A stretch of 26,621 nt of DNA, taken from IMG/VR virus record IMGVR_UViG_3300047678_000534, positions 1 to 26,621 of that record, one strand, 5' to 3'. A model generated the notes under the pieces. That model searched no databases, was not told the DNA's origin, and saw only the letters and a program-made list of their open reading frames with translations. Below, one piece after another: positions 6,522-24,153 of the stretch (its first letter is position 1; each line of letters begins with the position of its first letter). Source of the DNA: a virus. The position numbers and the translations under genes are program-made.

Positions 6522-6839
6522 CTAGCGCGGAACGCCAGCTCGCGCGCAGTCGGCAGCCTCGGTCGCTTTTGCCGCCTGATAGCGCGCTTCGTTCTTGGCC
6601 TGCAGCCACGCCGCTGAGACGAAACCGGCCTGAACGCAGGTCTGCATTGGGTCGCCCTGCCGCTTCGCCATCTCGTACTGAGCGACGGCGTCGTCCGCGA
6701 CCTTGTTCGAGATGTCGGCCATCGAGGAGGCGACGTACTTGTTCTCGGCTTCCTTGCCGATCGTGAAGTACGCCGCGACGCCCAAGACACCCAAAACCAA
6801 CCCGAGCACCTGCTGCCGCTTGGATACCGCTTCCGCCAT
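6522..6839 (-). CDS. Small membrane-anchored protein, paralogue of 23569-24153
   Basis: This 105-residue protein has one N-terminal membrane segment (VLGLVLGVLGVAAYFTIG) followed by a soluble domain of about 65 residues. The domain, from NKVADDAVAQYEMAKRQGD through CVQAGFVSAAWLQAK to ADCARAGVP, is over half identical to the C-terminus of the leftward protein at 23569-24153, including both cysteines. Each lies on the minus strand at one edge of the late structural block. ATG 6839 is chosen because TGCTCTGGT lies seven bases upstream, matching TGCTTTGGT at the same distance from ATG 24153. The frame stays open upstream to 7463, but that part has no paralogue match. The family is not recognised. 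Envelope roles such as superinfection exclusion are possible but unproven. Confidence 0.7.
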   Translation of the reverse strand: MAEAVSKRQQVLGLVLGVLGVAAYFTIGKEAENKYVASSMADISNKVADDAVAQYEMAKRQGDPMQTCVQAGFVSAAWLQAKNEARYQAAKATEAADCARAGVPR

Positions 6840-7146
6840 GGGCGGGACCAGAGCACACGAACCGCGGCGCGCGCGACCGCATGAACGTGCTGTGACTTTC
6901 GTTAGCTGACGAAAAAAAGGCGAGAGGCCCGATTCCCCGCCAAAAGCGCGCGTGGCGTGTGCGGCCCGGATTCCCGAGAACCCCAGCGCCTGCGCTGCCT
7001 TGCGCGGCGAAACCGAACAGACCGAGCAAACCAGCACGAACAGAGCAAACCGAAAGGTAAACACCTCCCATAGATAGTGACTGCGCAATAGCGACGGCCG
7101 ATGGGCGGCACGCGCAAGGCCTCCGAAAAGCAGTCGCTCGCCCACC
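6840..7146. other. Gene-free intergenic region
   Basis: About 300 bases lie between the divergent leftward gene and the late module. I see no convincing gene. It contains the near-palindrome TTTCGTTAGCTGACGAAA (about 6897-6914) and two partial direct repeats around 7014-7051, CGAACAGAccgAGCAAACC and CGAACAGAGCAAACC. A late promoter is expected here, but no confident -35/-10 is visible. Confidence 0.45.
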
Positions 7147-7305
7147 ATGGCCAAGGTCCGAACCTTCGACGCCCGCGGCCTTGGTCGCCGCTTCCGCCCC
7201 GAGACCGTAGCTCCCACCCAGCCCAAGCGCCTTCGCGCCAGCTTGGGAGAGCGCGTCCTGGCGAAGCAGATGGCGAAGGCCGAAGCCAGCCGCCGCGAGG
7301 AGTAG
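7147..7305 (+). CDS. Small basic protein at start of late module
   Basis: This 52-residue, strongly basic reading frame runs from ATG 7147 to TAG 7305. It contains KVRTFDARGLGRRFRPETVA and a helical end LGERVLAKQMAKAEASRREE. The terminal Glu-Glu codons double as the GAGGAG Shine-Dalgarno of the next gene at 7308, suggesting coupled genes. No good ribosome-binding site precedes its own ATG. It is not recognised. Confidence 0.5.
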   Translation: MAKVRTFDARGLGRRFRPETVAPTQPKRLRASLGERVLAKQMAKAEASRREE

Positions 7306-7307
7306 CC

Positions 7308-7493
7308 ATGCAGAAGACCGACCACCTCCGGACGCTGGCCCAGGCCAGGGCCTCCGCTCAGGCGCCCAACCAAACCCTTGCCCGTCTCAAGGCGCGTTCG
7401 TTTGGGAAGCCAACGCCCGTCACCATCGTGCCCCCGACGGTAGAGGTGCCCGAGCCCCTCCAAGGCTCGAGCCCCAAGCCCTTGGTGCGCTAG
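7308..7493 (+). CDS. Small hypothetical protein
   Basis: This 61-residue protein is not recognised. ATG 7308 follows GAGGAG at seven bases, which supports it over the longer open frame from 7101. The first half is helical (LRTLAQARASAQAPNQTLAR) and the second half is Pro/Val-rich (TPVTIVPPTVEVPEPLQGSS). It sits between the late-module start and the putative tail-completion gene. Confidence 0.6.
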   Translation: MQKTDHLRTLAQARASAQAPNQTLARLKARSFGKPTPVTIVPPTVEVPEPLQGSSPKPLVR

Positions 7494-7501
7494 GGGGCCC
7501 C

Positions 7502-8221
7502 GTGGGCCTCAGCGTCTACGTCGACACCAGCGACTTCAAGTCGCTGCACGACCACCTCGCGCGCTTCAAGAAGACGGCCCTGCCCTACGCCGCTCGAGAC
7601 GCCCTCAACGGGTGCGCCTTCGAGCTGCGGAAGGAGTGGCAGAGCCAGATCCGCACGACCTTCACCAACCGGAACAACTTCACCGAGAGGTCGATCCGGG
7701 TAGAGAAGGCCTCGGGGAACAACCTCAAGACCATGCAGAGCCGCGCCGGCTCGGTCGCTGCCTACATGGGCGACCAAGAGGCAGGCGCGACCGTCAGGGG
7801 TAGTGGGAAGCACAAGGCCATCCCTGGCCCGGTTGCAGCTGGGCAGAAGTCAGGCGGGCGCCGCACCAAGCTGGTGACGTCAGGGAAGCGTCTAGGCGCT
7901 ATCCACATCAAGAGCCCCAAGCTGGCCAAGTATGGGCGGCGCAGACAGAACGCTGTCGTGCTCGCTATCGCCATCAGGAAGCACGAGAAGCATGCATTGC
8001 TCAATCGTGCCAAGGGTGGTGGTAGGGGCATCTTCGAGGTCAAGGGCCTCAAGCGCAAAGCCAAGGTCAAGCTGTTGTACGACGTGAGCAAGAGCTCGGT
8101 GAAGGTGAAGCCTGAGCCAACGATGCGACGCGCGGTCAACGCGAGTGGGTATCGGTTCGAGAGGGCCATCTACAACGCGTTGCTCACGCAGCTGCGACGG
8201 AACAGGCTGATGGGCTTTTAG
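7502..8221 (+). CDS. Phage structural protein, possibly tail-completion/minor tail
   Basis: This 239-residue, very basic protein starts at GTG 7502 after GGGGG. The N-terminal third (FKKTALPYAARDALNGCAFE, then the NRNNFTERSIRV stretch) resembles phage minor-tail or completion proteins of the lambda gpZ or gp10 type. Those share a pattern of aligned alanines and asparagine before a basic region. Residues 95-175 are Lys/Arg/Gly-rich. The C-terminus contains RRAVNASGYRFERAIYNALL. Its position immediately before the packaging site and terminase supports a virion-assembly role. The family call is tentative; a nucleic-acid-contacting structural protein is the cautious reading. Confidence 0.55.
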   Translation: MGLSVYVDTSDFKSLHDHLARFKKTALPYAARDALNGCAFELRKEWQSQIRTTFTNRNNFTERSIRVEKASGNNLKTMQSRAGSVAAYMGDQEAGATVRGSGKHKAIPGPVAAGQKSGGRRTKLVTSGKRLGAIHIKSPKLAKYGRRRQNAVVLAIAIRKHEKHALLNRAKGGGRGIFEVKGLKRKAKVKLLYDVSKSSVKVKPEPTMRRAVNASGYRFERAIYNALLTQLRRNRLMGF

Positions 8222-8226
8222 CCTTC

Positions 8227-8238
8227 GAACACGTGTTC
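8227..8238. repeat. Perfect 12-bp palindrome
   Basis: GAACACGTGTTC begins six bases after the stop at 8221 and is one of two perfect dyads in the putative packaging region. Confidence 0.6.
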
Positions 8239-8267
8239 AATGTGTGGCGACAGCGCAATGCTGACAT

Positions 8268-8285
8268 CCTTTGGAATTCCAAAGG
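8268..8285. repeat. Perfect 18-bp palindrome
   Basis: CCTTTGGAATTCCAAAGG is fully self-complementary over 18 bp, about 80 bp before the first GTTAAGC repeat. It is a candidate nicking site for the terminase or an operator. Confidence 0.65.
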
Positions 8286-8363
8286 TACTGTAAAACAGCT
8301 GAAAATAGCGACGGTTGACATTGCGGCCGTGCCCCGGGAGACGAAACGGACCTTCTCCGTCGA

Positions 8364-8395
8364 GTTAAGCCGGGCAGTTAAGCAAAAAGTTAAGC
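8364..8395 (+). repeat. Three GTTAAGC direct repeats
   Basis: Identical heptamers start at 8364, 8377 and 8389, spaced 13 and 12 bp, so they lie roughly on one DNA face per turn. They end 22 bases before the small terminase start and resemble iterated small-terminase binding sites. Confidence 0.65.
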
Positions 8396-8417
8396 GGCTG
8401 TTCCGGCTCGGAAAAAA

Positions 8418-9215
8418 GTGGCCCAACGACTCATCTCCCGGGCCGAGCTCGCCCGCCGCGCCGACGTCTCGAAGGCGGCGATCACCCAGCGCTGCGCCAA
8501 GGACTTCGTCCCGGCCATCGTCGGCAAGAAGCTCGACCTCGACCACCCCGTCATCCAATCGTTCCTGACCGAGCGCGGCGTCGCAACGCCAGCTCCGGCC
8601 CGCGCTCCGACCAGGTCGCGGAAAGCTGCCCGGCCTGCGCCGCCCGAACCGACGGGCTCGCGGGAGGAGGGCTTGGGCGAGCAGCTCACCCCGACGGCGT
8701 TCCGCCCAGATCTTCCACCGGACGACCCGCGCCGGGCGTTCTCGCCTGGCTCGCCTGAGGATCTCGAATACCTGGGCTCGCTGCTCGAGCCGCTGGTCGC
8801 CTACTTCGGGACCGACGAGGGCTGCAAGAACTGGATGATCGCCCTTCGCGAGAAGGAGAACATCCGGGCGAAGCGCCTCGACAACGAGGAAACGGAAGGG
8901 CTGTCGATCCCACGAGAGTTCGTGGTCGTCCACATCCTCAGCCTCCTCGAAGAAACCAACAAGCGCTTGCTCGGCGACATGCCGAAGACGCTCGTGCGGC
9001 GCCTGTTCTCGCTGGCCAACACCGGCGCCACCCACACCGACGGCGAGCGCGAAGCCCGCGAAGCCGTGAGTTCGCATCTCGATGCCGTCCGCCAAAAGAT
9101 CGCGAAGAGCATCCGCGACGCCGCTCGCCGAGCAGCCGGAAGGCGGGCTGGAGCCGACCGAGGAGCAAGCGACGTGGTTCGCGGAGCAGATCGAGTCCCT
9201 AACAACAAGGCTTGA
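8418..9215 (+). CDS. Terminase small subunit
   Basis: This 265-residue protein starts at GTG 8418. It probably recognises the packaging site and recruits the large terminase. Residues 1-45 form a helix-turn-helix (SRAELARRADVSKAAITQRC) followed by KLDLDHPVIQSFL, as in lambda Nu1-like subunits. A Pro/Arg/Ala-rich linker (about 50-95) leads to a helical region: SPEDLEYLGSLLEPLVAYFG, MIALREKENIRAKRLDNEET (the RAxRLDNEET element is common in Nu1-like proteins) and VVHILSLLEETNKRLLGDMP. The last 45 residues, which overlap the large-subunit gene by 134 bases, are basic. Neighbours (a direct-repeat region before it and a gpA-family subunit after it) support the call. Confidence 0.85.
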   Translation: MAQRLISRAELARRADVSKAAITQRCAKDFVPAIVGKKLDLDHPVIQSFLTERGVATPAPARAPTRSRKAARPAPPEPTGSREEGLGEQLTPTAFRPDLPPDDPRRAFSPGSPEDLEYLGSLLEPLVAYFGTDEGCKNWMIALREKENIRAKRLDNEETEGLSIPREFVVVHILSLLEETNKRLLGDMPKTLVRRLFSLANTGATHTDGEREAREAVSSHLDAVRQKIAKSIRDAARRAAGRRAGADRGASDVVRGADRVPNNKA

Positions 9216-11118
9216 ACCGCTCACTCCTTCGGAGTGGGCCGAGCGCAATCGCTACCTGCCACAGGGGGTGACGCCGCTCCCCGGCCTCTACAGCTTCAAG
9301 GTCACGCCTTACCTGCGCGAAATCGTCGATTGCCTCGGCATCGACTCGCCGGTCCGCAAGCTCTCCTTCATGAAGGGCGTGCAGATTTGCGCGACCACGG
9401 GGGTGCTGGAAAACGCCATCGGCTACTACATCGCGCACGTCAAATCGGCGTCGATGATGATGGTCACGGCCGATAGCGACCTGGCCAAGCTCCGCATGGA
9501 GTCGGCTATTACGCCGATGCTCCAGGAGAGCGGGCTGCTGCACCTCATCAAGTCGAACGACGAGGCAAACACCCGTAAGACCGGCAAGACGGACAAGCGT
9601 CTCGACTGCATCGGCGGCGGCTGCCTGATCCCGAACGGCGCGCAGAATCCCAACAAGTTTCGCTCGCTGCCGATCCGCGTGATGCTGCGCGACGAGATCG
9701 ACGGCTGGCCCGACGTCGTCGGCAAGGACGGCGACCCGATGAAGCTCACGGAGGACCGCACGGCGGCCTACGAGAGCGAGCGCAAGATTCTCGACATCTC
9801 TACGCCGCTCATCAAAGGGCAGTCGAAGATCGAGAAGCAGTTTCTGCTGGGAGACCAGCGCTACTACTACGTCAACTGCGTCAAGTGCGGGCACGCGCAG
9901 GACCTGCGCTGGGAGCGCATCTCGAGTGACGGCGTAGTCAGCGGCATTTGGTGGGAAGAGGACGAGAAGACGGGCGAGCTCGTCTCGGGCAGCGTCCGCT
10001 ACCTCTGCGAGAAGTGCCAACACCCGCACACAAACGACGATAAGACGCGGCTTTTGGCAAGCGGGCAATGGCACCCGACGGCCACCCCCTCGAGCCCCGA
10101 TCACCGTAGCTACCACCTCAACGCGCTGTATTCGCCTGTGGGCATGCAGACGTGGGAGGCGCTGGTGCGGAAGTGGAAAGAGGCGTGGGACACCGTCAAC
10201 AAGCGGGTCATCGACCACGAGAAATTCCAAGTCTTCTACAACAACGTCCTCGGCAAGACCTACGAGATACGAGGCGAGAAGCTCCGGCTCGAGACCGTCT
10301 CGAGTCACCGTCGGCTGGGTGTCTACAGGTACGGTCAGGTGCCGAACCGCTGGGCGGCGGAGCACTGTGGCGGGGCGGCGCTGCTGCTCACGTGCTCGGT
10401 CGACGTCCACAAGGATTCGCTGAAGGTTGCGGTCTTCGCCTGGTGCCGAGAGCGACGAGCGCTGCTTGTCGACTACTGGACGCTGCCTGGTGACCCATCG
10501 CAGCGAAACGACCCAGGAACTTGGGGCGAGCTAGCAAAACTCATCGACGAGAAGAGGTACCCCGCCGACGACGGCAAGGTCTACCCGCTCGCCATCACGC
10601 TCGTCGACTCAGGCTACTTGAGCGACCAAGTCTACGAGTTCTGCACGCAATGGGAAACCGGCGTGTATCCGGTCGACGGCCGTGACCACCTAGGCACTTC
10701 GTCAAACAAGTACTTTTCCGCGTTCGTCTCCTCGATGGGCACGCGGGCCTTCGCAGTCGCCGGCGACCTGTACAAGGATCGCTGGGCCGCAGCACTACGG
10801 CTTGTCTGGAACGGCGAAGAGATTCAGCCGCCGGGACACTTCAACGCGCCCGAAGACGCGACCGAGAAGCAGCTGAAGGAGCTCACCGTTGAGGTGAAGC
10901 GCGAGAAGGTCGAGTCAAGCACCGGCAAGCGCGTCGGGCACTACTGGCACCGCGTTGCCGGCGTCGCCAACGAACTCTGGGACTGCCTCATCTACTCGGC
11001 CGCAGCGCTCGACATGCTCTGCCAAGACGTCTGCGCGAACCAACTAGGCCTCGAAGCTGCGGACTGGCAAGCCTTCTATCGAATCTGTGAAGACGGCGAG
11101 TACTGGGGAACGAGCTGA
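9082..11118 (+). CDS. Terminase large subunit, lambda gpA family
   Basis: This 678-residue protein is the ATPase-nuclease motor that cuts concatemeric DNA and pumps it into the prohead. The ATPase half has a divergent P-loop region (KGVQICATTG, about 98-107) and a Walker B, VMLRDEID (D204, E205). A zinc-finger-like insertion has CVKCGH (C266, C269) and CEKC (C309, C312). The C-terminal RNase H-like nuclease shows CSVDV (D441), LVDSG (D509) and LWDCLIY (D634), the acidic triad expected of gpA. Its length is close to lambda gpA (641 aa). ATG 9082 lies inside the small-subunit gene; the next conserved block starts at TPSEWAERNRYLP, so the exact N-terminus is less certain. It overlaps the gpW-like gene by TGATG. 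Confidence 0.93.
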   Translation: MPSAKRSRRASATPLAEQPEGGLEPTEEQATWFAEQIESLTTRLEPLTPSEWAERNRYLPQGVTPLPGLYSFKVTPYLREIVDCLGIDSPVRKLSFMKGVQICATTGVLENAIGYYIAHVKSASMMMVTADSDLAKLRMESAITPMLQESGLLHLIKSNDEANTRKTGKTDKRLDCIGGGCLIPNGAQNPNKFRSLPIRVMLRDEIDGWPDVVGKDGDPMKLTEDRTAAYESERKILDISTPLIKGQSKIEKQFLLGDQRYYYVNCVKCGHAQDLRWERISSDGVVSGIWWEEDEKTGELVSGSVRYLCEKCQHPHTNDDKTRLLASGQWHPTATPSSPDHRSYHLNALYSPVGMQTWEALVRKWKEAWDTVNKRVIDHEKFQVFYNNVLGKTYEIRGEKLRLETVSSHRRLGVYRYGQVPNRWAAEHCGGAALLLTCSVDVHKDSLKVAVFAWCRERRALLVDYWTLPGDPSQRNDPGTWGELAKLIDEKRYPADDGKVYPLAITLVDSGYLSDQVYEFCTQWETGVYPVDGRDHLGTSSNKYFSAFVSSMGTRAFAVAGDLYKDRWAAALRLVWNGEEIQPPGHFNAPEDATEKQLKELTVEVKREKVESSTGKRVGHYWHRVAGVANELWDCLIYSAAALDMLCQDVCANQLGLEAADWQAFYRICEDGEYWGTS

Positions 11119-11384
11119 TGTCTGACCTCGGCATTGACGACCTTCTCGAGTCGCAGGTCGCTCCGCTCAAAGCGAAGCTGGTCGCGATGATCGCCGCCAG
11201 CACAGGGCTCGCGACCGGCGCGATCCAATCGTACGAGCTCGAAACCGGCATGACCCGTCAGAAGGTCACCAAGGTCAACCTCGACGTTCTCGAGGCCGCC
11301 ATCGATAGCCTGATGAATACCCTCACCACGCTCGAAGCGCGCCTGCGCGGCTGCGGCGCGGTTCGCATCATCCCATCCTTCTAG
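11118..11384 (+). CDS. Head-tail joining protein, gpW-like
   Basis: This 88-residue protein fills the gpW slot between large terminase and portal, where lambda gpW helps close the filled head and build the tail interface. The sequence is helical (DDLLESQVAPLKAKLVAMIA, VNLDVLEAAIDSLMNTLTTL), with a central GMTRQKVTKVN and a C-terminal GAVRIIPSF tail. Length and position fit the family better than strict motif identity does. Translation is coupled to the terminase by the TGATG overlap. Confidence 0.6.
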   Translation: MSDLGIDDLLESQVAPLKAKLVAMIAASTGLATGAIQSYELETGMTRQKVTKVNLDVLEAAIDSLMNTLTTLEARLRGCGAVRIIPSF

Positions 11385-11391
11385 GAATGTC

Positions 11392-13026
11392 GTGCCGAAG
11401 AAGCCCGCCGCCAAGCCTGCGCGCAAGGCGCGGAGCAAGCAGAACTCTGAACGCGACGCGATCATCGTTGCGCTCAACGAGCTGCCTTCCGTGCGGGGCA
11501 TCGTCGATCACGGCGAGAAATTCGCCGGCGGGCTCGGCGCGATCGACATTCTTTTCACCGACTACTGGGCGCTCCGCGCTCGGTCGGCTGAGCTCTACCA
11601 GCGCAACCTCTACGCGCGCGGCCTGATCCGTCGGCTGATTTCGAATCAGATCAACACCGGCCTTCACCTCGAGGCCACGCCCGAGGAGAAGATTCTCGGG
11701 GTCGAGGAAGACTCGCTCTCCGACTGGTCCGAGGACGTCGAGAACAGATTCGCTATCTGGGGCAACAGCGCCTACCTCTGCGACCAGGACGAGCGGCGCT
11801 CGTTCGGTGCGCTCCAGGAGGCGGCGCAGACCGAGGCCCTGGTTGCCGGCGACGTGCTGGTGGTGCTGCGCAGCGACCCGCGCACGCGTCTACCTCGCGT
11901 GCAGCTCATTCCGGGCAGCGCGGTTCAGTCGCCGTGGAAGGACGCCCCAGCCGGGGCGACCATCGAGCACGGCGTCGAGCTGGACGCCCAGCGCAGGCAC
12001 GTCGCGTTCCACATCCTGCAGAAGGACGGGACGACGAAGCGTCTGCCCGCCTACGGCGAGAAGTCGGGGCGGCGCTTGGCCTGGCTCCACTACGGCAGCG
12101 ACAACCGCCTGAACGACGTGCGCGGCATGCCGCTGCTGGGGCTCGTGCTCCAGTCGCTGAAAGAGGTAGACCGGTACCGCGACGCATCTTTGCGCAAGGC
12201 CGTCATCAATTCGATGCTGGCCATGTTCGTCACGAAGGGTGCTCAGCTGCCCGGGACGAAGCCTCTGTCGGGCGGCGCCACGCGGCGCGGCACCGAAAAG
12301 ACTACCGGCAATGACGGCAAAGAGCGCAGCTTTCGCGCAGCCGAGAGTATCCCGGGCCTGGTCATCGAGGAGCTCCAGTTCGGCGAGAAGCCTGAGGCTT
12401 TCAAGACCGACCAGACCGTCGAGGCCTTCGGCGAGTTCGAGAAGGCAATCGTACAGGCCATCGCCTGGGCGAACGAAGTTCCCCCCGAGATCCTGACGCT
12501 GTCCTTCGGCAGCAACTACTCGGCGAGCCAGGCGGCCATCAACGAATTCAAGATGTATCTGAACCGCGTACGCACGCGGTTTGGTGAAAGCTTCTGCTCG
12601 CCCATCTACGAAGAGTGGCTGCTAGCGCAGACGCTGGCGGGACGCATTCAGGCCGACGGGTTCATCCAGTCGTTCCGCGCCTACGACCAATTTGAGACCT
12701 ACGGGTCTTGGATTTCCTGCGATTGGTCGGGCGCCATCAAGCCGGCCGTCGACCTTTCCAAGCTGGTTCGCGGCTATCGCGAAATGGTGGAAGCGGGCTT
12801 CATCACCCGTGACCGCGCTACGCGCGAGCTCACCGGCACGAAGTTCAGCAAGAACGCCAAGAAGCTGGCACGCGAAGCCGAGCTGGTCGTGGCTTTCACT
12901 CGCCCGCTGCTCGAGCTCGAAGCGGAGCTCGCCAAGGCACCCCAAACGCCCACCGTGATGCGCACGCGGAAGGCCATCAGCAAGAGCCTCAAAGGCGCAC
13001 GAAAAGGACTTTCCGCATGTGGCTGA
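11392..13026 (+). CDS. Portal protein, lambda gpB family
   Basis: This 544-residue protein should form the dodecameric ring at the capsid vertex through which DNA enters and leaves. Family-typical parts are the N-terminal YQRNLYARGLIRRLISNQIN, LVAGDVLVVLRSDP, an LIPGSAVQSP core (about 175), GMPLLGLVLQSLKEVDRYRD (about 245-265, the clip or stem approach), then PPEILTLSFGSNYSASQAAI and the stretch starting GSWISCDWSGAIKPAVDL. GTG 11392 follows AGGAA. It has about the same length as lambda gpB (533 aa). The 3' end overlaps the protease gene by ten bases. Confidence 0.92.
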   Translation: MPKKPAAKPARKARSKQNSERDAIIVALNELPSVRGIVDHGEKFAGGLGAIDILFTDYWALRARSAELYQRNLYARGLIRRLISNQINTGLHLEATPEEKILGVEEDSLSDWSEDVENRFAIWGNSAYLCDQDERRSFGALQEAAQTEALVAGDVLVVLRSDPRTRLPRVQLIPGSAVQSPWKDAPAGATIEHGVELDAQRRHVAFHILQKDGTTKRLPAYGEKSGRRLAWLHYGSDNRLNDVRGMPLLGLVLQSLKEVDRYRDASLRKAVINSMLAMFVTKGAQLPGTKPLSGGATRRGTEKTTGNDGKERSFRAAESIPGLVIEELQFGEKPEAFKTDQTVEAFGEFEKAIVQAIAWANEVPPEILTLSFGSNYSASQAAINEFKMYLNRVRTRFGESFCSPIYEEWLLAQTLAGRIQADGFIQSFRAYDQFETYGSWISCDWSGAIKPAVDLSKLVRGYREMVEAGFITRDRATRELTGTKFSKNAKKLAREAELVVAFTRPLLELEAELAKAPQTPTVMRTRKAISKSLKGARKGLSACG

Positions 13027-14393
13027 CGAAGATTCGACTCGCTCAACAGATTGAGCAAGCGCACGCCGAGGGCATGAAGTTGCCCGACGCTGTGATGGAG
13101 GCCTTCAATCGGCGCCACTACGAGGTCGGCTCGAACGGCGAGCCTCGCATCTTCAAGCGCGCTGGCGACGTCGCCGAGATCATGGTCGAAGGCGTGCTCA
13201 CGCCCAAGCCCGATTTCTACGCCTACTACTACGGCGGCGGGAACACGACGTATCCCGAGATCATCCAGTCGCTCGCGCTGGCAGGGGCAGACCCGTCCAT
13301 CAAACGGCTGGTGCTCAACATCAGCAGCCCCGGCGGCTACGTCGGCGGACTGTTCGACGCGCTCGCTGCGCTCGAGATGTTCGCCAAGCCGAAGGAAACT
13401 TTCGCCTCGATGGCGGACTCTGCGGCCTACGCCATCGCTGCGCTCGGCGGAAAGATCACTGCCACCAACGTGGCCGCCGAGTTCGGCAGCGTCGGGGTCT
13501 GCGCCACGTACGTGCAGTACGACTTCGAGAAGGTTTACGAGATCACCTCGACCAACGCGCCGAACAAGCGCCCCGACCCGAGCACGCCCGAGGGGCAGGC
13601 CGTGATCCGGAAGCAGCTGGACGCGATCGAGGAAATCTTCGTGGATTGCATCGCGCGCGGGCGCGGCACGACGAAGGACCTGGTCATCGCGGACTTCGGC
13701 CGAGGCGAGGTCCTGCTCGCCAATGAGGCGAAGCGCCTGAAGATGATCGACAAGATCGCCAAGGCGCCGCAGCGCTCGTTGCCGGCGGAGAACGGCGGCT
13801 ACGACTCGGCTGCTCGCGCTGAGCCTGCTGCCGCTGCGTCCGTCGCTGTCCCCGCGCCAGCTGCCCCCGAAGCGGCGGTCCAACAGACACCCGCGGCCGC
13901 AGCGCCGCCAGCGCCGGCACAGCCGGCACCCCAACAAGACGCATCCGCCGTTCGCGGCGGTGCTGACGCAGCAAAGGTAAGGAAACCAATGAACGAGCAA
14001 GAACTGCAAGCGCAGCACCCCGAGGTGTATTCGGCGGTGTTAAACAAGGGCAAGGTTGAGGGCGAGAAGGGCAAGGCCGAAGCCGTGTCAGCTGCCATCG
14101 CTACCGAACGCGATCGCGTCGAAGGTCACCTCATCATGGGTGAGGCCTCTGGCGAGATGAAGATCGCGCTCGAGAGCGTGCGCTCTGGCGCGACCATGAC
14201 CGTGGCTCTGCAGGCCAAGTACATGGCCGCTGGCATGAACCGTCGGGACACCGACGCGCGCGCAGCGGACGACGTCGCAGCTGCTGGCGCTTTGGGCGCT
14301 GCGGCCGGCACGAAGGAGCCGGGCGGCAAGTCCATGAAGGACCAGATCGCCGACGAAATCGAAGCCCAGACCAAGGGCACCGTCGCGGCCTAA
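13017..14393 (+). CDS. Capsid maturation protease (S49, gpC-like) fused to scaffold
   Basis: This 458-residue protein has an N-terminal S49/SppA-type serine protease (about 45-255) that processes the prohead, joined through a Pro/Ala-rich linker (about 263-322) to a scaffold domain. SSPGGYVGG (about 103), ASMADSAAYAIAALGG (nucleophile probably S135) and GSVGV (about 160) match the fold. K184 in NAPNKRPDPS is a candidate catalytic lysine. The C-terminal segment from residue 325 has its own start at 13989, giving the nested arrangement seen in lambda C/Nu3. It comes directly after the portal, in lambda gene order. Confidence 0.9.
   Translation: MWLTKIRLAQQIEQAHAEGMKLPDAVMEAFNRRHYEVGSNGEPRIFKRAGDVAEIMVEGVLTPKPDFYAYYYGGGNTTYPEIIQSLALAGADPSIKRLVLNISSPGGYVGGLFDALAALEMFAKPKETFASMADSAAYAIAALGGKITATNVAAEFGSVGVCATYVQYDFEKVYEITSTNAPNKRPDPSTPEGQAVIRKQLDAIEEIFVDCIARGRGTTKDLVIADFGRGEVLLANEAKRLKMIDKIAKAPQRSLPAENGGYDSAARAEPAAAASVAVPAPAAPEAAVQQTPAAAAPPAPAQPAPQQDASAVRGGADAAKVRKPMNEQELQAQHPEVYSAVLNKGKVEGEKGKAEAVSAAIATERDRVEGHLIMGEASGEMKIALESVRSGATMTVALQAKYMAAGMNRRDTDARAADDVAAAGALGAAAGTKEPGGKSMKDQIADEIEAQTKGTVAA
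13989..14393 (+). CDS. Nested scaffold protein (Nu3-like), internal start
   Basis: In frame within the protease gene, ATG 13989 is preceded by GGTAAGGA at good spacing, so a separate 134-residue scaffold protein (MNEQELQAQHPEVYSAVLNK onward) is likely. It is helical, with KVEGEKGKAEAVSAAIATER. In lambda, Nu3 is made from such an internal start and guides capsid assembly before being removed by the protease. The internal start is read from the sequence; its use is inferred from the family. Confidence 0.75.
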   Translation: MNEQELQAQHPEVYSAVLNKGKVEGEKGKAEAVSAAIATERDRVEGHLIMGEASGEMKIALESVRSGATMTVALQAKYMAAGMNRRDTDARAADDVAAAGALGAAAGTKEPGGKSMKDQIADEIEAQTKGTVAA

Positions 14394-14435
14394 GGCTGCA
14401 CGCGCACCCCCAACTTCTGAAGGAAAGACCAGAAA

Positions 14436-16053: not shown

Positions 16054-16092
16054 TCCTGAGTCGCTCCAGAAGGAAAAAAGAGGAAGACCCCC

Positions 16093-16530: not shown

Positions 16531-16536
16531 AGCGCG

Positions 16537-17633: not shown

Positions 17634-17635
17634 CC

Positions 17636-19405
17636 ATGGTCGATGTTTCAGCCAAGGCGCGAGTCTTTGGCATGGCTACGCAATTTGTGAACCTGCGCGG
17701 CGGAGCTGCGCTCAAGCTCCCGCAACAGATCGCTGTCCTGGCGCAGGGCTCGAGTGACACCGTCTTCAGCACGGTTAAGGCCCGAGCCACCAGCGCCGCC
17801 GAGGTTGGCAATCGCGCCGGCTGGGGCAGCCCCGCCCACCTGATTGCCGACCAGCTGCTGCCCGCCAATGGCGACGGCGTCGGGACCATCCCGGTGACGT
17901 TCTACCTGCTGGCGGACGACGGATCGGGTGCGCCTTCCGTGGGCGACATCACGCCCTCCGGTACCGCCACCAAGGCGCAGGCCTGGCGCGTGAGCGTGAG
18001 TGGCATTCTGTCCAACGAATTCGTGATCCCGGCTGGCGCCGTCGTCGTGAACGACGTGCTCCGCAAGATCTACGACGCGATGGTCGGCGTCCTGAAGATG
18101 CCGGTGAAGATGACGTTTGCCTACGGCAGCGTCACCGCTGGCGCCCTGGTCGGCACCGGCAACGGCACGCTCACCGCGCTGGGCATCAGCTCCGGCCAAA
18201 CGCCGCGCCCCGGCGCCTACACCCTCAAGGTCAAGACGGCGGTCGCGAACGGCGGCGTTTGGACGCTACGCGATCCGGACGGGAACATCGTTGCGGACGA
18301 CCTCACGCAGACCGTGGGTGTCGGTACCGCCACTCCCTTCGTAAACAAGGGTGGCCTCGATTTCACCATCACGGATAGCACGACCGACTTCGGCCTGAAC
18401 GCGACCTTCACGATCACGGTGCCCGCCACCAAGATCAACATGACGTCGAAGTGGAAGGGCGTGAGCGCCAACGCCATCACGCTCGCGATGGTGGGTGACT
18501 CCACGCTGGGTGTGAGCTTCGGCATCACGCAACCCGCCGGCGGCCTCGTGAATCCCAGCATCGCTAACGCCTTGGCTCAGTTCGGCGGCTCCTGGGAAAC
18601 CCTGGTGCTCAACGCCATGAACATCACCGACTTGGTGACGCTCGACCTGCTGAAGGAATTCGGCGTCGGGCGCTGGAACGAGCTCGTCCGCAAGCCCTTC
18701 GTGGCCTTCTGCGGCACCACGATCGCCGCGGTGGCGACGGCCTCCGCCGTCCCCTCTGCGCGCCCAGACGACTACGTGAACGCCGCCCTGGTTGCACCCG
18801 GCAGCCCCAACCTGCCTTTCGTCGTGGCAGCGCGCCAACTCGCGCGCATCGCGGTCGAAGCGAACGAGAACCCACCCACGGACTACGGCGCTGCCGAGGT
18901 CACCGGGATCACCGCCGGCACCGACGGCGAGCAATGGGACTACACGAAGAAGGACCTTGCCCTCAAGGCTGGTTGCTCGTCCGTTGACGTGGTCGACAAC
19001 GTCGTCCGCATCGCTGACGTCGTCACCTTCTACCACCCGACGGGTGAAGAGGACCCGGCGTTTCGCTACGTCGTCGACATCGTGAAGCTGCAGAACTCGA
19101 TGTACAACATCGGGCTGCCGTTCACGACGAAGGAGTGGTCGGGCGCACCGCTGGTGCCGGACAACCAGGTCGTAACGAACCCGAAGGCGCGCTCACCGAA
19201 GCACGTGATCGCGGTCGTGGCTGGCGCCGTCGATGCGCTTGGAAAGGCCGCGATCCTGAGTGATCCGGAGGCGGCCAAGAAGACCATCAAGGCCGCAATC
19301 GCTGGCCCGAAGCGCATCGACTTCGAAGTCACCGTGCAGCTCTCGGGTAACACCAACGTCAAGAGTGCAACGCTTCGCTTCGGCTTCTACTACGGCACTG
19401 CGTAA
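17636..19405 (+). CDS. Contractile tail sheath protein
   Basis: This 589-residue protein has the layout of Mu gpL-type tail sheaths: an N-terminal entry region (KLPQQIAVLAQGSSDTVFST), a variable middle with Gly-rich beta segments (for example VTAGALVGTGNGTLTALGIS), and a conserved C-terminal half. That half includes YVNAALVAPGSPNLPFVVAA, ARIAVEANENPPTDYGAAEV, DLALKAGCSSVDVVDNVVRI and VTFYHPTGEEDPAFRYVVDI. It also has the family-like IVKLQNSMYNIGLPFTTKEW. The protein contracts to drive the tube through the host envelope, so the phage is a myovirus. It lies three bases after the preceding gene and is followed by the HNH insertion. Confidence 0.9.
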   Translation: MVDVSAKARVFGMATQFVNLRGGAALKLPQQIAVLAQGSSDTVFSTVKARATSAAEVGNRAGWGSPAHLIADQLLPANGDGVGTIPVTFYLLADDGSGAPSVGDITPSGTATKAQAWRVSVSGILSNEFVIPAGAVVVNDVLRKIYDAMVGVLKMPVKMTFAYGSVTAGALVGTGNGTLTALGISSGQTPRPGAYTLKVKTAVANGGVWTLRDPDGNIVADDLTQTVGVGTATPFVNKGGLDFTITDSTTDFGLNATFTITVPATKINMTSKWKGVSANAITLAMVGDSTLGVSFGITQPAGGLVNPSIANALAQFGGSWETLVLNAMNITDLVTLDLLKEFGVGRWNELVRKPFVAFCGTTIAAVATASAVPSARPDDYVNAALVAPGSPNLPFVVAARQLARIAVEANENPPTDYGAAEVTGITAGTDGEQWDYTKKDLALKAGCSSVDVVDNVVRIADVVTFYHPTGEEDPAFRYVVDIVKLQNSMYNIGLPFTTKEWSGAPLVPDNQVVTNPKARSPKHVIAVVAGAVDALGKAAILSDPEAAKKTIKAAIAGPKRIDFEVTVQLSGNTNVKSATLRFGFYYGTA

Positions 19406-19416
19406 GCAGCCTAGGC

Positions 19417-20046
19417 ATGGTGAAACGGAGAAAGAGGAGGGCGGCTACACGCCCCTCCTCTTCGCCATGCAAACGAGGCCACGCTGGAGAGCGGTACGTC
19501 GTCTCCGGGGAGTGCGTGGAATGCGTAATCCTGCGCGCGCAGCAGCACTACGGGCGAAACAGCGACGCCATCAAAGAAGGCGCCCGGTCCCGATACCGAT
19601 CTGACCCAGAAACGAAGAGGGCTGCTGTTCGAAGCCGAGCGCTCGCAAACCCCGAGGCTGTTCGCGCTGAGAAGCGCCGCGAGTACCAGCACCACAAGGC
19701 CGCCTACGTTGCGCGGTCGGTCGCTTGGTCCAGAGCCAACAGGGAACGCTTTCGCGAGATGCATCTCGCTTGGCGGAAGGGCAACCCGGAGAAGCTCTCT
19801 CACTGGGCGGCGCTACACCGAGCGGCACGCCTCATTCGACGTCCGCCGTGGCTCACCGCTGAGCAGCTGTTCGAGATCCGTGGCTTCTACGCGGAGGCGC
19901 GTCGACTGACGACGACGACCGGTATTCGACACGAAGTCGATCACATCGTGCCTCTGCTCGGAGAGACGGTGTCTGGCCTTCACGTCCCGTGGAATCTGCA
20001 GGTTCTGACTGACGTCGAGAACCGCGCCAAGTCGAACAAGTTCTAG
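19417..20046 (+). CDS. HNH (homing-type) endonuclease
   Basis: This 209-residue protein has a zinc-binding start, CKRGH then CVEC (about residues 18-40), typical of phage-borne HNH endonucleases. A long basic helical region of repeated Arg/Tyr follows (RKAVRSR-like, YQHHKAAYVARSVAWSRANR). The C-terminal HNH core reads HEVDHIVPLLGE, GLHVPWNLQVLTDVENRAKS. Such enzymes cut intron- or gene-lacking DNA and spread their own gene. It interrupts the sheath-tube pair, which are otherwise adjacent in Mu-like tails, so it is a probable insertion. No intron-like sequence is visible and the neighbouring genes look intact. Confidence 0.85.
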   Translation: MVKRRKRRAATRPSSSPCKRGHAGERYVVSGECVECVILRAQQHYGRNSDAIKEGARSRYRSDPETKRAAVRSRALANPEAVRAEKRREYQHHKAAYVARSVAWSRANRERFREMHLAWRKGNPEKLSHWAALHRAARLIRRPPWLTAEQLFEIRGFYAEARRLTTTTGIRHEVDHIVPLLGETVSGLHVPWNLQVLTDVENRAKSNKF

Positions 20047-20082
20047 CGCGAGCAAGCGAGCCGAACGCGTCCCCCCGCGGGC

Positions 20083-20111
20083 GTGAGCGGGCGCGCGCGT
20101 CCGTCGCTCAC
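20083..20111. terminator. Stem-loop after the HNH gene
   Basis: GTGAGCG (20083-20089) and CGCTCAC (20105-20111) form a 7-bp stem in the 89-base gap before the tube gene. No T tract follows; it may insulate or process the message between the inserted gene and the tube gene. Confidence 0.45.
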
Positions 20112-20135
20112 TCCAGAAAAAAGCAAGGACTTCAC

Positions 20136-20534
20136 ATGTCAGCAATTGGTGGATCGGTCAGAAACATCTCGATCGCCGGCCGGAGCTTCACGCTTGCCGC
20201 AGACGCGGACGTAGAGCTCGACATTGGCGGCTTCTCCAACGAGGTGCAGGCGAACGGCGACGGCACCGTCCGGGTCATCAAGACCCGCAAGCCGTGGGGC
20301 GCGAGCGGCATGCCCGTGTCCATCGACCCCGCGCGCAACGACTTGGAGTTCCTCCAAGGTTGCGCCGACGGCAAGGATGCGGGTGAAGACGGCCTCTACG
20401 ACATGACGGTCACCTTGGTGAACAACGTCACGTACCAGGGGCGCGGCATCGTCGCCGATGACCTGAAGTTCAGCACCCAGAACTCGACTGCTGAGATCAC
20501 CGTGAGCGGCTCAGACGCTCTGACTCAGCAGTAA
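20136..20534 (+). CDS. Tail tube protein
   Basis: This 132-residue protein corresponds to the Mu gpM-type tube that polymerises inside the sheath. It has the expected beta-rich pattern: VRNISIAGRSFTLAADADVE, then GGFSNEVQANGDGTVRVIKT, then DMTVTLVNNVTYQGRGIVAD, and a C-terminal KFSTQNSTAEITVSGSD. Short length and the order sheath, tube, chaperone, tape measure support the call. AAGGA precedes the ATG. Confidence 0.88.
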   Translation: MSAIGGSVRNISIAGRSFTLAADADVELDIGGFSNEVQANGDGTVRVIKTRKPWGASGMPVSIDPARNDLEFLQGCADGKDAGEDGLYDMTVTLVNNVTYQGRGIVADDLKFSTQNSTAEITVSGSDALTQQ

Positions 20535-20563
20535 CCGACACGTCAATACCGAGGAGAAACGTC

Positions 20564-20983
20564 ATGGCTGAATTGAAAGTGGCGCTTGAGGTCGCGCAAG
20601 CGGACTTCGAGCGCATGTGTGTGGCCCGGCGCGTGAAGCTCGACCAGGCCGGATGGGACGCGGAAGATGTGAGTACGTTCAAGGTCCTACGAGACAAGGC
20701 CGAGTCGGCCATATGCGCCGGGGCCTTGCGGATCGAACAAGACGGCACGCCGATCTTCACCGCGCAGGGCGGAGAGCAGAAGGGCAAGGAGTTCAAGCTC
20801 CGCCCCGCGAACGGCGCCAGTCTCATCGCCCAAGACGGAAAAGTCGGCGCGGCGCGCTGCTTCGCGGCCTTGGCCGAGCTGACCAAGCTCAACGTGGGCG
20901 AGTTCGCCAAGCTCGAAGTGCCGGACGTCGATGTCTTGTCGACGCTGTACACACTTTTTTTTCAACGCGCGTCGTCGATCTAA
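20564..20983 (+). CDS. Tail assembly chaperone, unshifted product
   Basis: This 139-residue protein is encoded just before the tape measure. It fills the place of lambda G or Mu 41, chaperones that keep the tape measure soluble while the tube assembles. It starts at ATG 20564 after GAGGAG. The sequence is helical with LRDKAESAICAGALRIEQDG and FKLRPANGASLIAQDGKVGA. The gene ends shortly after a T8 run at which ribosomes can slip into the -1 frame. Confidence 0.85.
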   Translation: MAELKVALEVAQADFERMCVARRVKLDQAGWDAEDVSTFKVLRDKAESAICAGALRIEQDGTPIFTAQGGEQKGKEFKLRPANGASLIAQDGKVGAARCFAALAELTKLNVGEFAKLEVPDVDVLSTLYTLFFQRASSI

Positions 20984-21198
20984 TCGTCTGGGGCGGCGCC
21001 GACAAAGCGCTCTTGAGCGCAAGCGGAAGCGATAGCGAGAACACTTTCCTGACCGTGTACCGCGCGATGCTCCGGCAGATTGCGCGCGAGTACCAGTTTT
21101 CGCTACGCGACCTGCGCGCCATCACCGACGCCGAGATCCGCTTCTTCTACGACATCCTCAGGCCAGAACTCCGGCGCGCGACGAAGAGCAAGAAGTAG
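20564..21198 (+). CDS. Tail assembly chaperone, -1 frameshift fusion
   Basis: This is the predicted second product. Ribosomes read the first 133 codons, slip back one base on T TTT TTT (20956-20962), and continue STRVVDLIVWGGADKALLSA to the stop at 21196-21198, giving 211 residues. The extension has LTVYRAMLRQIAREYQF and ITDAEIRFFYDIL, helical as in lambda GT. It ends directly at the tape-measure start (21199). Such shifts are conserved in tailed phages. The slip site is read directly; the frequency is unknown. Confidence 0.85.
20956..20962 (+). promoter_or_regulatory. Programmed -1 frameshift slippery site
   Basis: T TTT TTT in the reading frame of the chaperone gene, within a T8 run at 20955-20962, fits the X XXY YYZ rule for tandem slippage. 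The zero-frame stop TAA follows at 20981-20983, and the -1 frame is open to 21198. Confidence 0.85.
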
Positions 21199-23445
21199 AT
21201 GGGCGCCGGGAGGTTCAGTGTCGACACCGTCTTCGGTGCAACGGATCGCATGTCGGGTCCGATGGCGAAGATGGAGTCGCGCGCGACGCGCTTTGAGAAG
21301 GCGCTCGGCGGAGCGAACAAGGTGGCCGATCGCGGAGCTGGCCTGATCACAGGCCTCGGCGCCGCCACCGCGGTTGCAGGATCAGCAGCGGCCATGGGCT
21401 TTCACACGCTGGTTGGCGCGTCGGATGCCGTCGACGACAGCTTGGCCAAGTTCAGCTCGATCGTTTCCGACAAGGGCGAGGTGAGCCGCGCGCGCGAGTC
21501 GGCGCTCGCATGGAGCAAGGCCCACAGAGACACCGCGGTCAATTTCCTCGACACGTCGTACATGATGGCCAGCGCGGGCCTGCAGGGCGAAGCGGCCATC
21601 GAGGGCACGCGCGCCGCGCTGCAAGTCGCGACGGCGACGATGGGCGATGGCGTCACCGCGGGCGGGCTAATCGCGACCCTGTACAACAACGTCGCCGACA
21701 AGGCCGCGAACGCCAAGACCGAGATTGAGCGGCTCGGCGACGTTGTGACCAAGACCCAACAGACGTTCCAGTTTGCAAATCTCGGGCAGCTGAACGAGGG
21801 CCTCAAGTACGGCATCCCCAGCGCGCTTCAGTTCGGTATCGAGATCGAGGAGCTTTCGGCCGTCATCGGCGTCCTGAACAACAAGGGCCTTCAAGGGTCG
21901 ATGGCTGGCACCGCGTTTGGTGCGTCGATGCGTTCGATGCAGAAGGCCTCCAAGGCGTTGCGCTTCGATATCGCGCAGACGGCTGCCGGTGGTGTCGACT
22001 TCACCGGGACGGTCCAGAACATTGAAAAGCGGTTCGGCCGACTCGGGGACATGACTGACGAGACCAAGCAGAAGTTCGCTCTCGCGTTCGGCGACGAAGG
22101 CTGGCGCGGTCTTTCGCTCTTGCTCGCCAACACCGACGACCTCAGCAAGGGGCTCGCCCAGGTGAAGGATAACGCTGGCGCCACGGCCAGGGCCGCCGCT
22201 GAGATCGAGAGCAAGGGTTCGGCGCGGTGGACCATTCTCGGCAACAGGATCACCGCGCTCAAAGTCGGGCTCGGTGACGCGCTCGCGCCAGCGGCCGAGA
22301 AAGCGCTGGGCGCCTTCGGCAGATTGGTGGGCATCGGCGACGAGTGGCTCTCGACCAACCAGGCGCTTCTTAGCCAAAAACTTGGCGAGAAGATCACTGA
22401 GTGGACGCCGATCGTCGAAAGCTTCGGCAAAGGAATGAAGGACGCCTTCAACGATGCAAAGCCCACGATCGAGGCTGTGGGTAGTGCGCTCTCGGGCGTG
22501 TTCGGCGAGGGCGCTGGCGGCGCGCGCATTCAGGCCTACGAGCTCGGCAACAACATCGCGACGGCTGCTGTTCGCTTCGGCGAGTTCTGGTTGGTCACCA
22601 AGGCGGTGACGGCGGCGACCGCCGTGTGGAGCTTTGTGACGGGCGCCGCCCGGACCGCAATGATCGCCCTGGAAGGCATCGTCTGGGCTGCGAAAACGGC
22701 TTGGTTTTGGTACAACGTTTGGACCAAGGCAGGAACCGCCTCGACGATCGCGATGGCGGGAGCCGGCGTGATTGCGCAAGGAAGCCTGATGGCGACACGC
22801 GTCTCCGCATTCGCCGCGGCGGGAGGATTCAAGGCACTGGCCGGGGCCGCTGGCTTGGCAACGGTCGCCTACCTCGCGTACGCGGCCGTCGACGAGGCGA
22901 ACCAGGGCCTCAAGAAGGAGACGGGCGGCAAGGGCATCTTGGACGTCGGTTGGGAGTGGGCCACAACCGACAAGGGCCTCAAGGAGATCGCCGACGAGAA
23001 CCTAGACCGCCAGGCGAAGGAAGAGGCGCGTCGCGAGGGGCGCCTGCCTGGCGTCACCGGCGCGACCAGTCAGAACGACCTCTCGAGCCTCAGCAGCCTC
23101 GCTGCGCTCGGCAACATCGACGCGCTCACGAGGCAGCTAGAGGCCTTGGACAAGGCCTCAGGTCAGCTGCCGCCTGGCATGAGGCAAACGCCCGTCGAGG
23201 CAGCCGGGAGCGGCAGCGGCGGCCTCGCTGGCATGCCGGTGGCCGCGCCGGCTTCGAATGACCCGGCCGTCGTCTCGCTCAAGGAAGACTCGTCCGCCCG
23301 TCTCTCCCAGGACCTCAGCAACGCGGTCAAGGGCGCCGTCAAGGGCGCGATCGTCATCAAGCTCAAGGACCCGGGCAAGACCGTCAGCGGGGTCGAGACC
23401 GAGGGAAGCGACATCATGTCGATCGACCCGAGCGGGAGCTTCTGA
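21199..23445 (+). CDS. Tail tape measure protein
   Basis: This 748-residue protein sets tail length and occupies the tube lumen before DNA ejection. Its N-terminal half (TAVNFLDTSYMMASAGLQGE, LIATLYNNVADKAANAKTEI, GIPSALQFGIEIEELSAVIG, LRFDIAQTAAGGVDF, RFGRLGDMTDETKQKF) matches TP901-type tape measures. Residues 460-570 contain hydrophobic helices (VIAQGSLMATRVSAFAAAGG, LATVAYLAYAAVDEANQGL), typical of the membrane-acting part. The C-terminus is Ser/Gly-rich, ending VIKLKDPGKTVSGVETEGSD. It is the last recognised tail gene in the window. Confidence 0.92.
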   Translation: MGAGRFSVDTVFGATDRMSGPMAKMESRATRFEKALGGANKVADRGAGLITGLGAATAVAGSAAAMGFHTLVGASDAVDDSLAKFSSIVSDKGEVSRARESALAWSKAHRDTAVNFLDTSYMMASAGLQGEAAIEGTRAALQVATATMGDGVTAGGLIATLYNNVADKAANAKTEIERLGDVVTKTQQTFQFANLGQLNEGLKYGIPSALQFGIEIEELSAVIGVLNNKGLQGSMAGTAFGASMRSMQKASKALRFDIAQTAAGGVDFTGTVQNIEKRFGRLGDMTDETKQKFALAFGDEGWRGLSLLLANTDDLSKGLAQVKDNAGATARAAAEIESKGSARWTILGNRITALKVGLGDALAPAAEKALGAFGRLVGIGDEWLSTNQALLSQKLGEKITEWTPIVESFGKGMKDAFNDAKPTIEAVGSALSGVFGEGAGGARIQAYELGNNIATAAVRFGEFWLVTKAVTAATAVWSFVTGAARTAMIALEGIVWAAKTAWFWYNVWTKAGTASTIAMAGAGVIAQGSLMATRVSAFAAAGGFKALAGAAGLATVAYLAYAAVDEANQGLKKETGGKGILDVGWEWATTDKGLKEIADENLDRQAKEEARREGRLPGVTGATSQNDLSSLSSLAALGNIDALTRQLEALDKASGQLPPGMRQTPVEAAGSGSGGLAGMPVAAPASNDPAVVSLKEDSSARLSQDLSNAVKGAVKGAIVIKLKDPGKTVSGVETEGSDIMSIDPSGSF

Positions 23446-23506
23446 GCGCCATAGCGTCATGAGCCATCACTCGTTTGGTTGACCCGGAAAAACTCACAAG
23501 TCGAGA

Positions 23507-23538
23507 CGACGACTGCTAGGGTCCTTGCGACGTCGTCG
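23507..23538. repeat. Inverted repeat between convergent genes
   Basis: CGACGAC (23507-23513) and GTCGTCG (23532-23538) are perfect arms in the 123-base gap between the tape measure and the convergent leftward gene. Together with GCCGC/GCGGC near 23556-23567 it may serve as a bidirectional terminator, though no T tract is present. Confidence 0.4.
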
Positions 23539-23568
23539 GTGTTGCCATCCCCCCGGCCGCTGGCGGCG

Positions 23569-24153
23569 TCACTGCTGTGGCATCCCCGCCTTAGCGCAGT
23601 CGGCCTTCTGGATGCCTTTCCAGGATGTGTATTCGTGCTCGTCCTGCGCCTGCAGGTAAGCAGCAGCGACCATGCCGGCCTGAACGCAGATCTGAATCTT
23701 GTCGCCTTGCCGCGCCGCTATCCGGTAGCGGGCAACAGCGTCGCTGGCCACCTTTTGGTTGATGTTGGCCATCATAGAATCGCGGCGTTCTTCGAGACTG
23801 GGGCGTCGCGCCTGCGGTGCCGCTATTGGCGGAGCAAACTCGCAAACGTACGCGGCTGGTCCCGCAGACTCGCGGCTGAGAAACCAAATCCCGCCCCAGA
23901 CAGCGAGCCCCATCAACCAAGCGAGCCAGCCGTGACGGTTGACGGACTTGGCCTTGTTCGGGTGCTCCTTTCGCCAGACGTAGAACAGGATCGAGCTGCC
24001 GAGCACGACGAACCAGGAGCCGATGTAGGGGACGAGAGCGGCGCCGTACAGGCCAACCTTCCAGCCCCGCGATAGCACGTCGTCTGGGTCGGGGCCCTCT
24101 TCGTAGCTGTCATCGTCGATCTCGGCCTCGGCAACAGCGGCACGCTTTCCCAT
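23569..24153 (-). CDS. Membrane protein, paralogue of 6522-6839
   Basis: This 194-residue protein has an acidic N-terminus (EAEIDDDSYEEGPDPDD), two membrane segments (GLYGAALVPYIGSWFVVLGS and GWLAWLMGLAVWGGIWFLS) and a soluble C-terminal domain. That domain, from NQKVASDAVARYRIAARQGD through CVQAGMVAAAYLQAQ to ADCAKAGMP, is over half identical to the leftward protein at 6522-6839, both cysteines included. ATG 24153 is preferred over ATG 24195 because TGCTTTGGT lies seven bases upstream, matching the paralogue. It is transcribed toward the tape measure. Function is unknown; an envelope protein acting on the host surface or on superinfection is possible. Confidence 0.75.
   Translation of the reverse strand: MGKRAAVAEAEIDDDSYEEGPDPDDVLSRGWKVGLYGAALVPYIGSWFVVLGSSILFYVWRKEHPNKAKSVNRHGWLAWLMGLAVWGGIWFLSRESAGPAAYVCEFAPPIAAPQARRPSLEERRDSMMANINQKVASDAVARYRIAARQGDKIQICVQAGMVAAAYLQAQDEHEYTSWKGIQKADCAKAGMPQQ

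What the first reader, a model, noticed from the sequence alone, without database searches (positions are those of the whole stretch)
6522..24153. Two paralogous leftward membrane proteins bracket the late module
The genes at 6522-6839 and 23569-24153 share a C-terminal domain of about 61 residues (about 35 identities by my alignment), with matching cysteines (CVQAG, ADCA) and a matching TGCTyTGGT seven bases before each start. Both lie on the opposite strand to the virion genes and have different membrane anchors. Two copies of one unknown domain at the module edges suggest a selected envelope function such as exclusion or host-surface change, or duplication linked to module exchange.
Basis: partly seen in the sequence, partly recalled or inferred. 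Interest (0 to 1): 0.7.

Follow-up and report, generated by a model that had tools for sequence, protein, structure and literature searches.

The report
Paired phage membrane-anchored accessory proteins
A phage fragment carries two distantly related copies of a small, unnamed, membrane-anchored protein that other phages keep beside their lysogeny repressor or their tape-measure gene, where known proteins that shut out rival phages are encoded, so it is probably an exclusion-type accessory gene of an undescribed family.

Summary
Genes 6522-6839 and 23569-24153 (both leftward) share a 68-residue C-terminal domain (39/68 identical, E=4e-25) under different membrane anchors. The domain matches no Pfam, PHROG, NCBIfam or PADLOC family and no natural protein in the PDB. 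I found relatives in 27 other viral contigs and a few bacterial MAGs. They carry the domain behind a zinc ribbon plus transmembrane helix, a single helix, or a lipoprotein signal. Two cysteines are kept together or lost together (24 both, 5 neither, 0 one). AlphaFold gives a confident three-helix domain. These facts point to a domain held outside the inner membrane.

In four relatives the gene follows a CI repressor on the same strand (gaps 2, 12, 16 and 91 bp). In four phages, this one included, it lies beside the tape-measure gene. HK97 gp15 and TP-J34 Ltp, known DNA-injection blockers, lie in such slots. They are not homologous to it.

Two corrections: the late module is collinear with Shewanella phage SppYZU01 only up to the tape-measure gene, so the copies do not bracket it; and recent duplication is not supported. 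Best reading: moron-type envelope genes, probably for superinfection exclusion. Function is inferred, not shown.

The parts
6522..6839 (-). P0001 gene, 105 aa: short N-terminus, one predicted transmembrane helix, C-terminal domain
6756..6812 (-). predicted transmembrane helix of P0001 (aa 10-28)
   Evidence: hydropathy; helix in the model
6525..6728 (-). shared C-terminal domain of P0001 (aa 38-105), with the two conserved cysteines
   Evidence: modelled with pLDDT 91-97
6847..6885 (-). upstream stretch similar to the one before P0002, including TGCTCTGGT (possible shared regulatory element)
   Evidence: weak significance
6494..6522 (-). hairpin-forming sequence (CGAAACTCGGGTGTCCGAGTTTT) directly after the P0001 stop codon; possible terminator
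   Evidence: not picked up by the terminator scan and its folding energy is not unusual (z -0.16)
23569..24153 (-). P0002 gene, 194 aa: acidic N-terminus, multi-helix membrane anchor, C-terminal domain
23965..24033 (-). first hydrophobic helix of the P0002 anchor (aa 41-63)
   Evidence: modest confidence; hydropathy peak at aa 33-51
23869..23931 (-). second hydrophobic helix of the P0002 anchor (aa 75-95)
   Evidence: below the hydropathy cut-off used
23575..23778 (-). shared C-terminal domain of P0002 (aa 126-193); the modelled three-helix fold spans aa 120-188
   Evidence: pLDDT 94-98
24161..24198 (-). upstream stretch similar to the one before P0001, including TGCTTTGGT
21199..23445 (+). 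tape-measure protein gene, convergent with P0002
   Evidence: phrog_991 and phrog_28; collinear with SppYZU01
7502..23445 (+). head and tail genes (minor tail protein, terminases, portal, protease, capsid, sheath, tube, chaperone, tape measure) between the two copies

Best explanation
The two genes are separate moron-type accessory genes encoding members of one undescribed family. Each has a variable membrane anchor and holds a roughly 70-residue, three-helix, usually disulfide-bonded domain on the outer side of the inner membrane (or, in lipoprotein members, on a lipid anchor). Most likely the domain acts in superinfection exclusion at the DNA-injection step. It would sit in the periplasm of an infected or lysogenic cell, bind an incoming phage's ejected tail component (the tape-measure protein is the best candidate) or a host injection partner, and stop DNA from entering. 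Shown: shared domain, purifying selection, family distribution, gene contexts, cysteine co-variation. Inferred: topology, disulfide, exclusion, and tape-measure targeting (the least certain step). Two copies with different anchors could give two exclusion specificities, but that is speculative.
For: Domain homology and dN/dS about 0.29. Anchors among relatives: zinc ribbon plus TM, single TM, lipobox lipoprotein signals, multi-TM; the shared part is the domain, not the anchor. Cysteine pair 24 both, 5 neither, 0 one (Fisher p 8e-6, phylogeny not corrected), which suggests a disulfide and hence an extracytoplasmic site. Co-oriented with and directly downstream of a CI repressor in L012 (12 bp), L023 (16 bp), L047 (2 bp) and L011 (91 bp), so probably expressed in lysogens. 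Beside the tape-measure gene in the window, L052 (6-bp gap), L027 (antisense, between chaperone and tape measure) and L010. Antisense within tail or baseplate genes in L017, L020 and L055. HK97 gp15 lies between chaperone and tape-measure genes and TP-J34 ltp lies downstream of the CI-like repressor; both block DNA injection, and changes in tail genes overcome them (PMC10883804). Rare and patchy in bacteria (1 of about 297 Pseudomonadota, 0 of 368, 0 of 191 genomes beyond the query genomes), as expected of a mobile accessory gene.
Against: No functional test exists. No sequence relation to any known exclusion protein: the Cor (phrog_1119) matches vanish when the lipoprotein signal is removed, and HK97 gp15 and Ltp do not align. 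The fold is a generic three-helix arrangement. Many relatives lie on short or poorly annotated contigs where context tells nothing, and contexts were read by eye. The two cultured relatives of this phage's late module whose annotation I read list no integrase, so it may be virulent and prophage expression may not apply. Charge bias does not fix P0001 topology (two positive residues on each side). No sigma-70-type promoter was found at either gene.
Confidence: 0.48

Rival explanations
1. Moron-type lysogenic-conversion proteins that change the host envelope or stress physiology (for example a sensor or chaperone-like adaptor built on a TPR/MIT-like helical domain), with no role in phage exclusion.
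For: Same contexts (CI operons, antisense insertions). A three-helix TPR/MIT-like domain is a typical protein-binding module. N-terminal zinc ribbons in about a third of members suggest coupling to a cytoplasmic partner.
Against: Repeated placement beside the tape-measure gene is not specifically predicted. No host pathway partner recurs next to the gene.
Confidence: 0.3
2. Lytic-cycle function: a lysis accessory or spanin-like protein, or a membrane factor for assembly.
For: Small membrane-anchored or lipoprotein phage proteins are often lysis genes. In L017 and L020 the gene is followed by a second gene on the same strand that begins like a lipoprotein.
Against: Often antisense to late genes or in CI operons, the wrong place for late expression. 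The TM and lipoprotein forms replace one another instead of forming a pair as spanins do.
Confidence: 0.1
3. The two copies arose by duplication within this phage lineage, together with their upstream region, and were then separated by module exchange.
For: Similar 39-nt upstream stretch ending at the same distance from both start codons. None of 22 other viral records searched has a second copy, so a second independent acquisition would be uncommon.
Against: The copies are no closer to each other than to those of unrelated phages; anchors are unrelated; the tree does not group them, although grouping is not rejected (p-AU 0.46).
Confidence: 0.3
4. Chance resemblance or non-coding frames in GC-rich DNA.
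For: The region is GC-rich and carries long overlapping frames on both strands.
Against: E=4e-25, independent relatives in other phages with AT-rich genomes, dN/dS about 0.29, confident fold in both copies.
Confidence: 0.01

Closest known systems
HK97 gp15 (moron superinfection-exclusion protein)
   Same: Small membrane-anchored phage protein; gene in the slot between tail chaperone and tape-measure genes, as in L052, L027 and L010; [quoted passage not shown]
   Different: 62 aa with no matching domain or cysteines; hhalign probability 0.6%.
TP-J34 Ltp (superinfection-exclusion lipoprotein)
   Same: Anchored helical domain outside the membrane; gene co-oriented downstream of a CI-like repressor, as in L011, L012, L023 and L047; its block can be overcome by tape-measure changes (PMC10883804).
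   Different: Solved structure 4eqq was not compared with the models; Gram-positive host; no sequence relation (hhalign probability 0.2%).
Cor of phi80/N15 (PHROG 1119)
   Same: Short lipoprotein moron for superinfection exclusion; three lipoprotein members match its model weakly.
   Different: The match disappears when the lipoprotein signal is removed. Cor inactivates the FhuA receptor (PMC11436027); nothing here points to a receptor.
P22 SieA
   Same: Inner-membrane, prophage-expressed block of DNA injection (PMC10883804).
   Different: Not compared by sequence here; it acts on P22 and its short-tailed relatives and has no effect on other tailed phage types (PMC10883804).

Membership tests
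moron (phage accessory gene) | extra gene absent from the same place in related phages | tested here: met
   In the collinear SppYZU01 the tape-measure gene abuts the next tail gene (18286); the window has P0002 there. The left-hand copy was not tested in the same way: SppYZU01 has an unrelated leftward gene near that border.
moron (phage accessory gene) | own promoter and terminator | tested here: inconclusive
   Both genes are antisense to neighbouring genes and need their own promoter, but the consensus scan found none (host promoter type unknown); hairpin after P0001, terminator-like sites near P0002
moron (phage accessory gene) | expressed from the prophage | not testable with these tools
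   Inferred only from CI-operon position in four relatives; no transcript data
superinfection-exclusion protein (functional class) | blocks infection by a second phage when expressed | not testable with these tools
   needs expression and plaque assays
superinfection-exclusion protein (functional class) | membrane- or surface-located | tested here: met
   Predicted TM helices or lipobox in most members, including both window proteins; prediction only
HK97 gp15 family | sequence homology to gp15 | tested here: not met
   hhalign probability 0.6%
TP-J34 Ltp family | sequence homology to Ltp | tested here: not met
   hhalign probability 0.2%
Cor family (PHROG 1119) | homology of the mature protein | tested here: not met
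   No match for L014 and L010 mature domains without the signal
named Pfam, NCBIfam, PADLOC or PHROG family covering the domain | match to a curated model over the domain | tested here: not met
   Only zinc-ribbon and lipoprotein-signal models recur among the 28 members, besides weak scattered matches

The most novel reading that the evidence does not exclude
One small extracytoplasmic domain, passed between phages of very different hosts and re-fitted to whatever anchor is at hand, is a common but undescribed device that blocks DNA entry by recognising tape-measure or ejection proteins; this phage carries two differently anchored copies for two specificities.
Probability: 0.25. Interest if true: 0.65.

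Novelty: new variant of a known kind. Interest (0 to 1): 0.45.

Why it matters
If the reading is right, this is an unnamed family of candidate exclusion proteins, absent from current phage and defence libraries, that can be tested directly in lysogens. Its placement both next to repressors and next to tape-measure genes ties two known kinds of exclusion gene, Ltp-type and gp15-type positions, to one domain, and would help show how lysogens stop DNA entry by contractile- and long-tailed phages.

Tried and rejected
Chance or non-coding origin: rejected. Known families: Pfam, PHROGs, NCBIfam, PADLOC and sequence search of the PDB gave nothing over the domain; PDB sequence hits are designed coiled coils plus one insignificant natural chain. 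Foldseek in BFVD and PDB gave no match below E 0.001; VIA-align Z up to 8.9 falls in the range noted as common for helical bundles, so no fold relative is claimed. Cor homology: rejected as a signal-peptide match. gp15 and Ltp homology: not found. Duplication: not resolved. Search of cultured phages with P0002 and with a hand-made consensus of the domain: none; plasmids: one weak hit. Upstream motif in relatives: not found in the 11 upstream regions printed. For the repeat array: no Rfam match at gathering score, no exact copy of the repeat core in other viral contigs, only chance-level matches in phages and at most weak ones in plasmids.

Full report
What was checked. The window is a whole IMG/VR virus record of 26,621 bases, linear and probably a fragment. 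Both genes exist as described. P0001 (6522-6839, minus, 105 aa) and P0002 (23569-24153, minus, 194 aa) share a C-terminal domain: 39 of 68 residues identical, no gaps, E=4e-25. A whole-window repeat search finds the same match at DNA level (72% over 135 nt). Codon differences are concentrated at third positions (21/18/36) and dN/dS is about 0.29, so both domains have been kept as protein. The motif TGCTyTGGT occurs exactly twice, before these two genes, inside a 39-nt stretch of weak extended similarity. The N-terminal anchors are unrelated: one helix in P0001, two or more in P0002.

What the domain is. No curated family covers it (Pfam, PHROGs, NCBIfam, PADLOC) and no natural protein in the PDB matches significantly by sequence. 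Profile-guided scans found it in 27 other viral contigs, five bacterial MAG contigs and, more divergent, one further bacterial genome. It was not found in 50,697 phage records, and one weak hit was found in plasmids (the consensus query was written by hand). In sampled genomes it is rare: one of about 297 Pseudomonadota, none of 368 in the class of G005 and none of 191 in the phylum of G003, not counting the query genomes. AlphaFold models of both proteins place the domain as three helices with pLDDT 91-98. Structural comparison finds only generic TPR/MIT-like and designed bundles.

Where the domain sits. Members attach it to very different anchors: N-terminal zinc ribbon plus one helix (for example L007, L012, L013, L023, L052), a single helix (L003, L011, L027, P0001), a lipoprotein signal with lipobox (L010, L014, L016, L017, L025, L030), or a multi-helix anchor (L004, P0002). 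Lipoprotein export puts the domain outside the cytoplasm, and the common domain across anchors suggests the same side for all. Two cysteines, one in helix 2 and one in helix 3, are both present in 24 members and both absent in 5, never singly. That is expected of a disulfide. This placement is inference; charge bias alone does not settle the topology of P0001.

Gene context. Four relatives have the gene co-oriented and directly downstream of a CI-type repressor: L047 (2-bp gap), L012 (12 bp), L023 (16 bp) and L011 (91 bp). Such genes should be expressed with the repressor in a lysogen. Four phages have it beside the tape-measure gene: this window (just after it, antisense), L052 (6 bp before it, same strand), L027 (antisense, between the chaperone and tape-measure genes) and L010 (between chaperone and tape measure, next to a repressor and an anti-repressor). 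L017, L020 and L055 carry it antisense among tail or baseplate genes; L014 and L016 carry it among head-tail connector genes. The remaining contigs are too short or too poorly annotated to count, and the tally was made by eye. This variable placement is what morons show.

The surrounding phage. The genes from 7502 to 23445 are collinear with Shewanella phage SppYZU01 from its position 1481 to the tape-measure gene ending at 18286, apart from the HNH gene. In SppYZU01 the next tail gene starts at 18286, with no room for another gene, whereas here P0002, a repeat array and several small genes follow, and no baseplate gene is recognised before the record ends. So P0002 marks the tape-measure/baseplate junction, not the end of the late module, and the word 'bracket' needs this correction.

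One duplication or two arrivals. Over the family alignment the two copies are 51% identical, while P0001 is 61% identical to L041 and P0002 60% to L022 and 58% to L005. The tree leaves both unplaced, and the test does not reject them as sisters (p-AU 0.46). The upstream similarity argues mildly for a common origin or a shared regulator. The question stays open.

Mechanism. Exclusion genes that block DNA injection occupy both of these gene positions in known phages. HK97 gene 15 lies between the tail chaperone and tape-measure genes, and TP-J34 ltp lies in the lysogeny operon downstream of the CI-like repressor (PMC3952083). Both blocks are relieved by changes in tail or tape-measure genes (PMC10883804). 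The new family shares these positions and a predicted anchored helical domain outside the membrane, but no sequence relation. I therefore think it most likely works like these proteins, stopping an incoming phage's DNA at the inner membrane, perhaps through the tape-measure protein. The membrane and moron parts are well supported, exclusion is about even odds, and the tape-measure target is the least certain step. It is not a member of the gp15, Ltp or Cor families.

Verdict. The domain is an unnamed family, best filed as a new variant of moron/exclusion-type genes, with function untested. Interest is moderate: the family is new to libraries and directly testable, but the kind of gene is known.

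Noticed in passing
window 24222-24628: CRISPR-like array directly upstream of P0002: five exact copies of a 36-nt repeat (GTCACCGCCGCCGCGCTCTCGCGTAGCCGTTCGGAC) and one degenerate end copy, with unique spacers of 35-37 nt and one of 47. Some spacers contain inverted repeats (for example GTCTCCAATTGGAGAC), which is unusual for CRISPR spacers. Repeat core not found elsewhere in viral contigs; no cas gene was identified among the window proteins scanned.
   Followed up: partly
window 6294-6322 and 6494-6522: Two copies (90% identical) of a 29-nt hairpin-forming sequence flank the stretch between the 5577-6263 gene and P0001; possible paired terminators.
   Followed up: partly
window 2666-3559: Protein matching the Mom DNA-modification family (PF25680, E=2.4e-21), suggesting modified phage DNA.
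   Followed up: no
window 19417-20046: HNH-type gene (name from my own reading, not from a family match) between sheath and tube; SppYZU01 has homologues at other places (13257-13709, before its sheath, and 36813-37196), as for a mobile endonuclease.
   Followed up: no
window 17636-19405: Sheath protein of 589 aa matches related phages in two pieces covering about 80-84% in most of the best matches, suggesting an extra domain.
   Followed up: no
L017 10180-10968 and L020 10673-11476: A second gene on the same strand, beginning like a lipoprotein and without any PHROG match, follows the domain gene in two related tail modules.
   Followed up: no
L018 1252-1752 and L025 9555-9884: Zinc-ribbon proteins adjacent to the domain gene in both contigs, perhaps relatives of the anchor part.
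   Followed up: no
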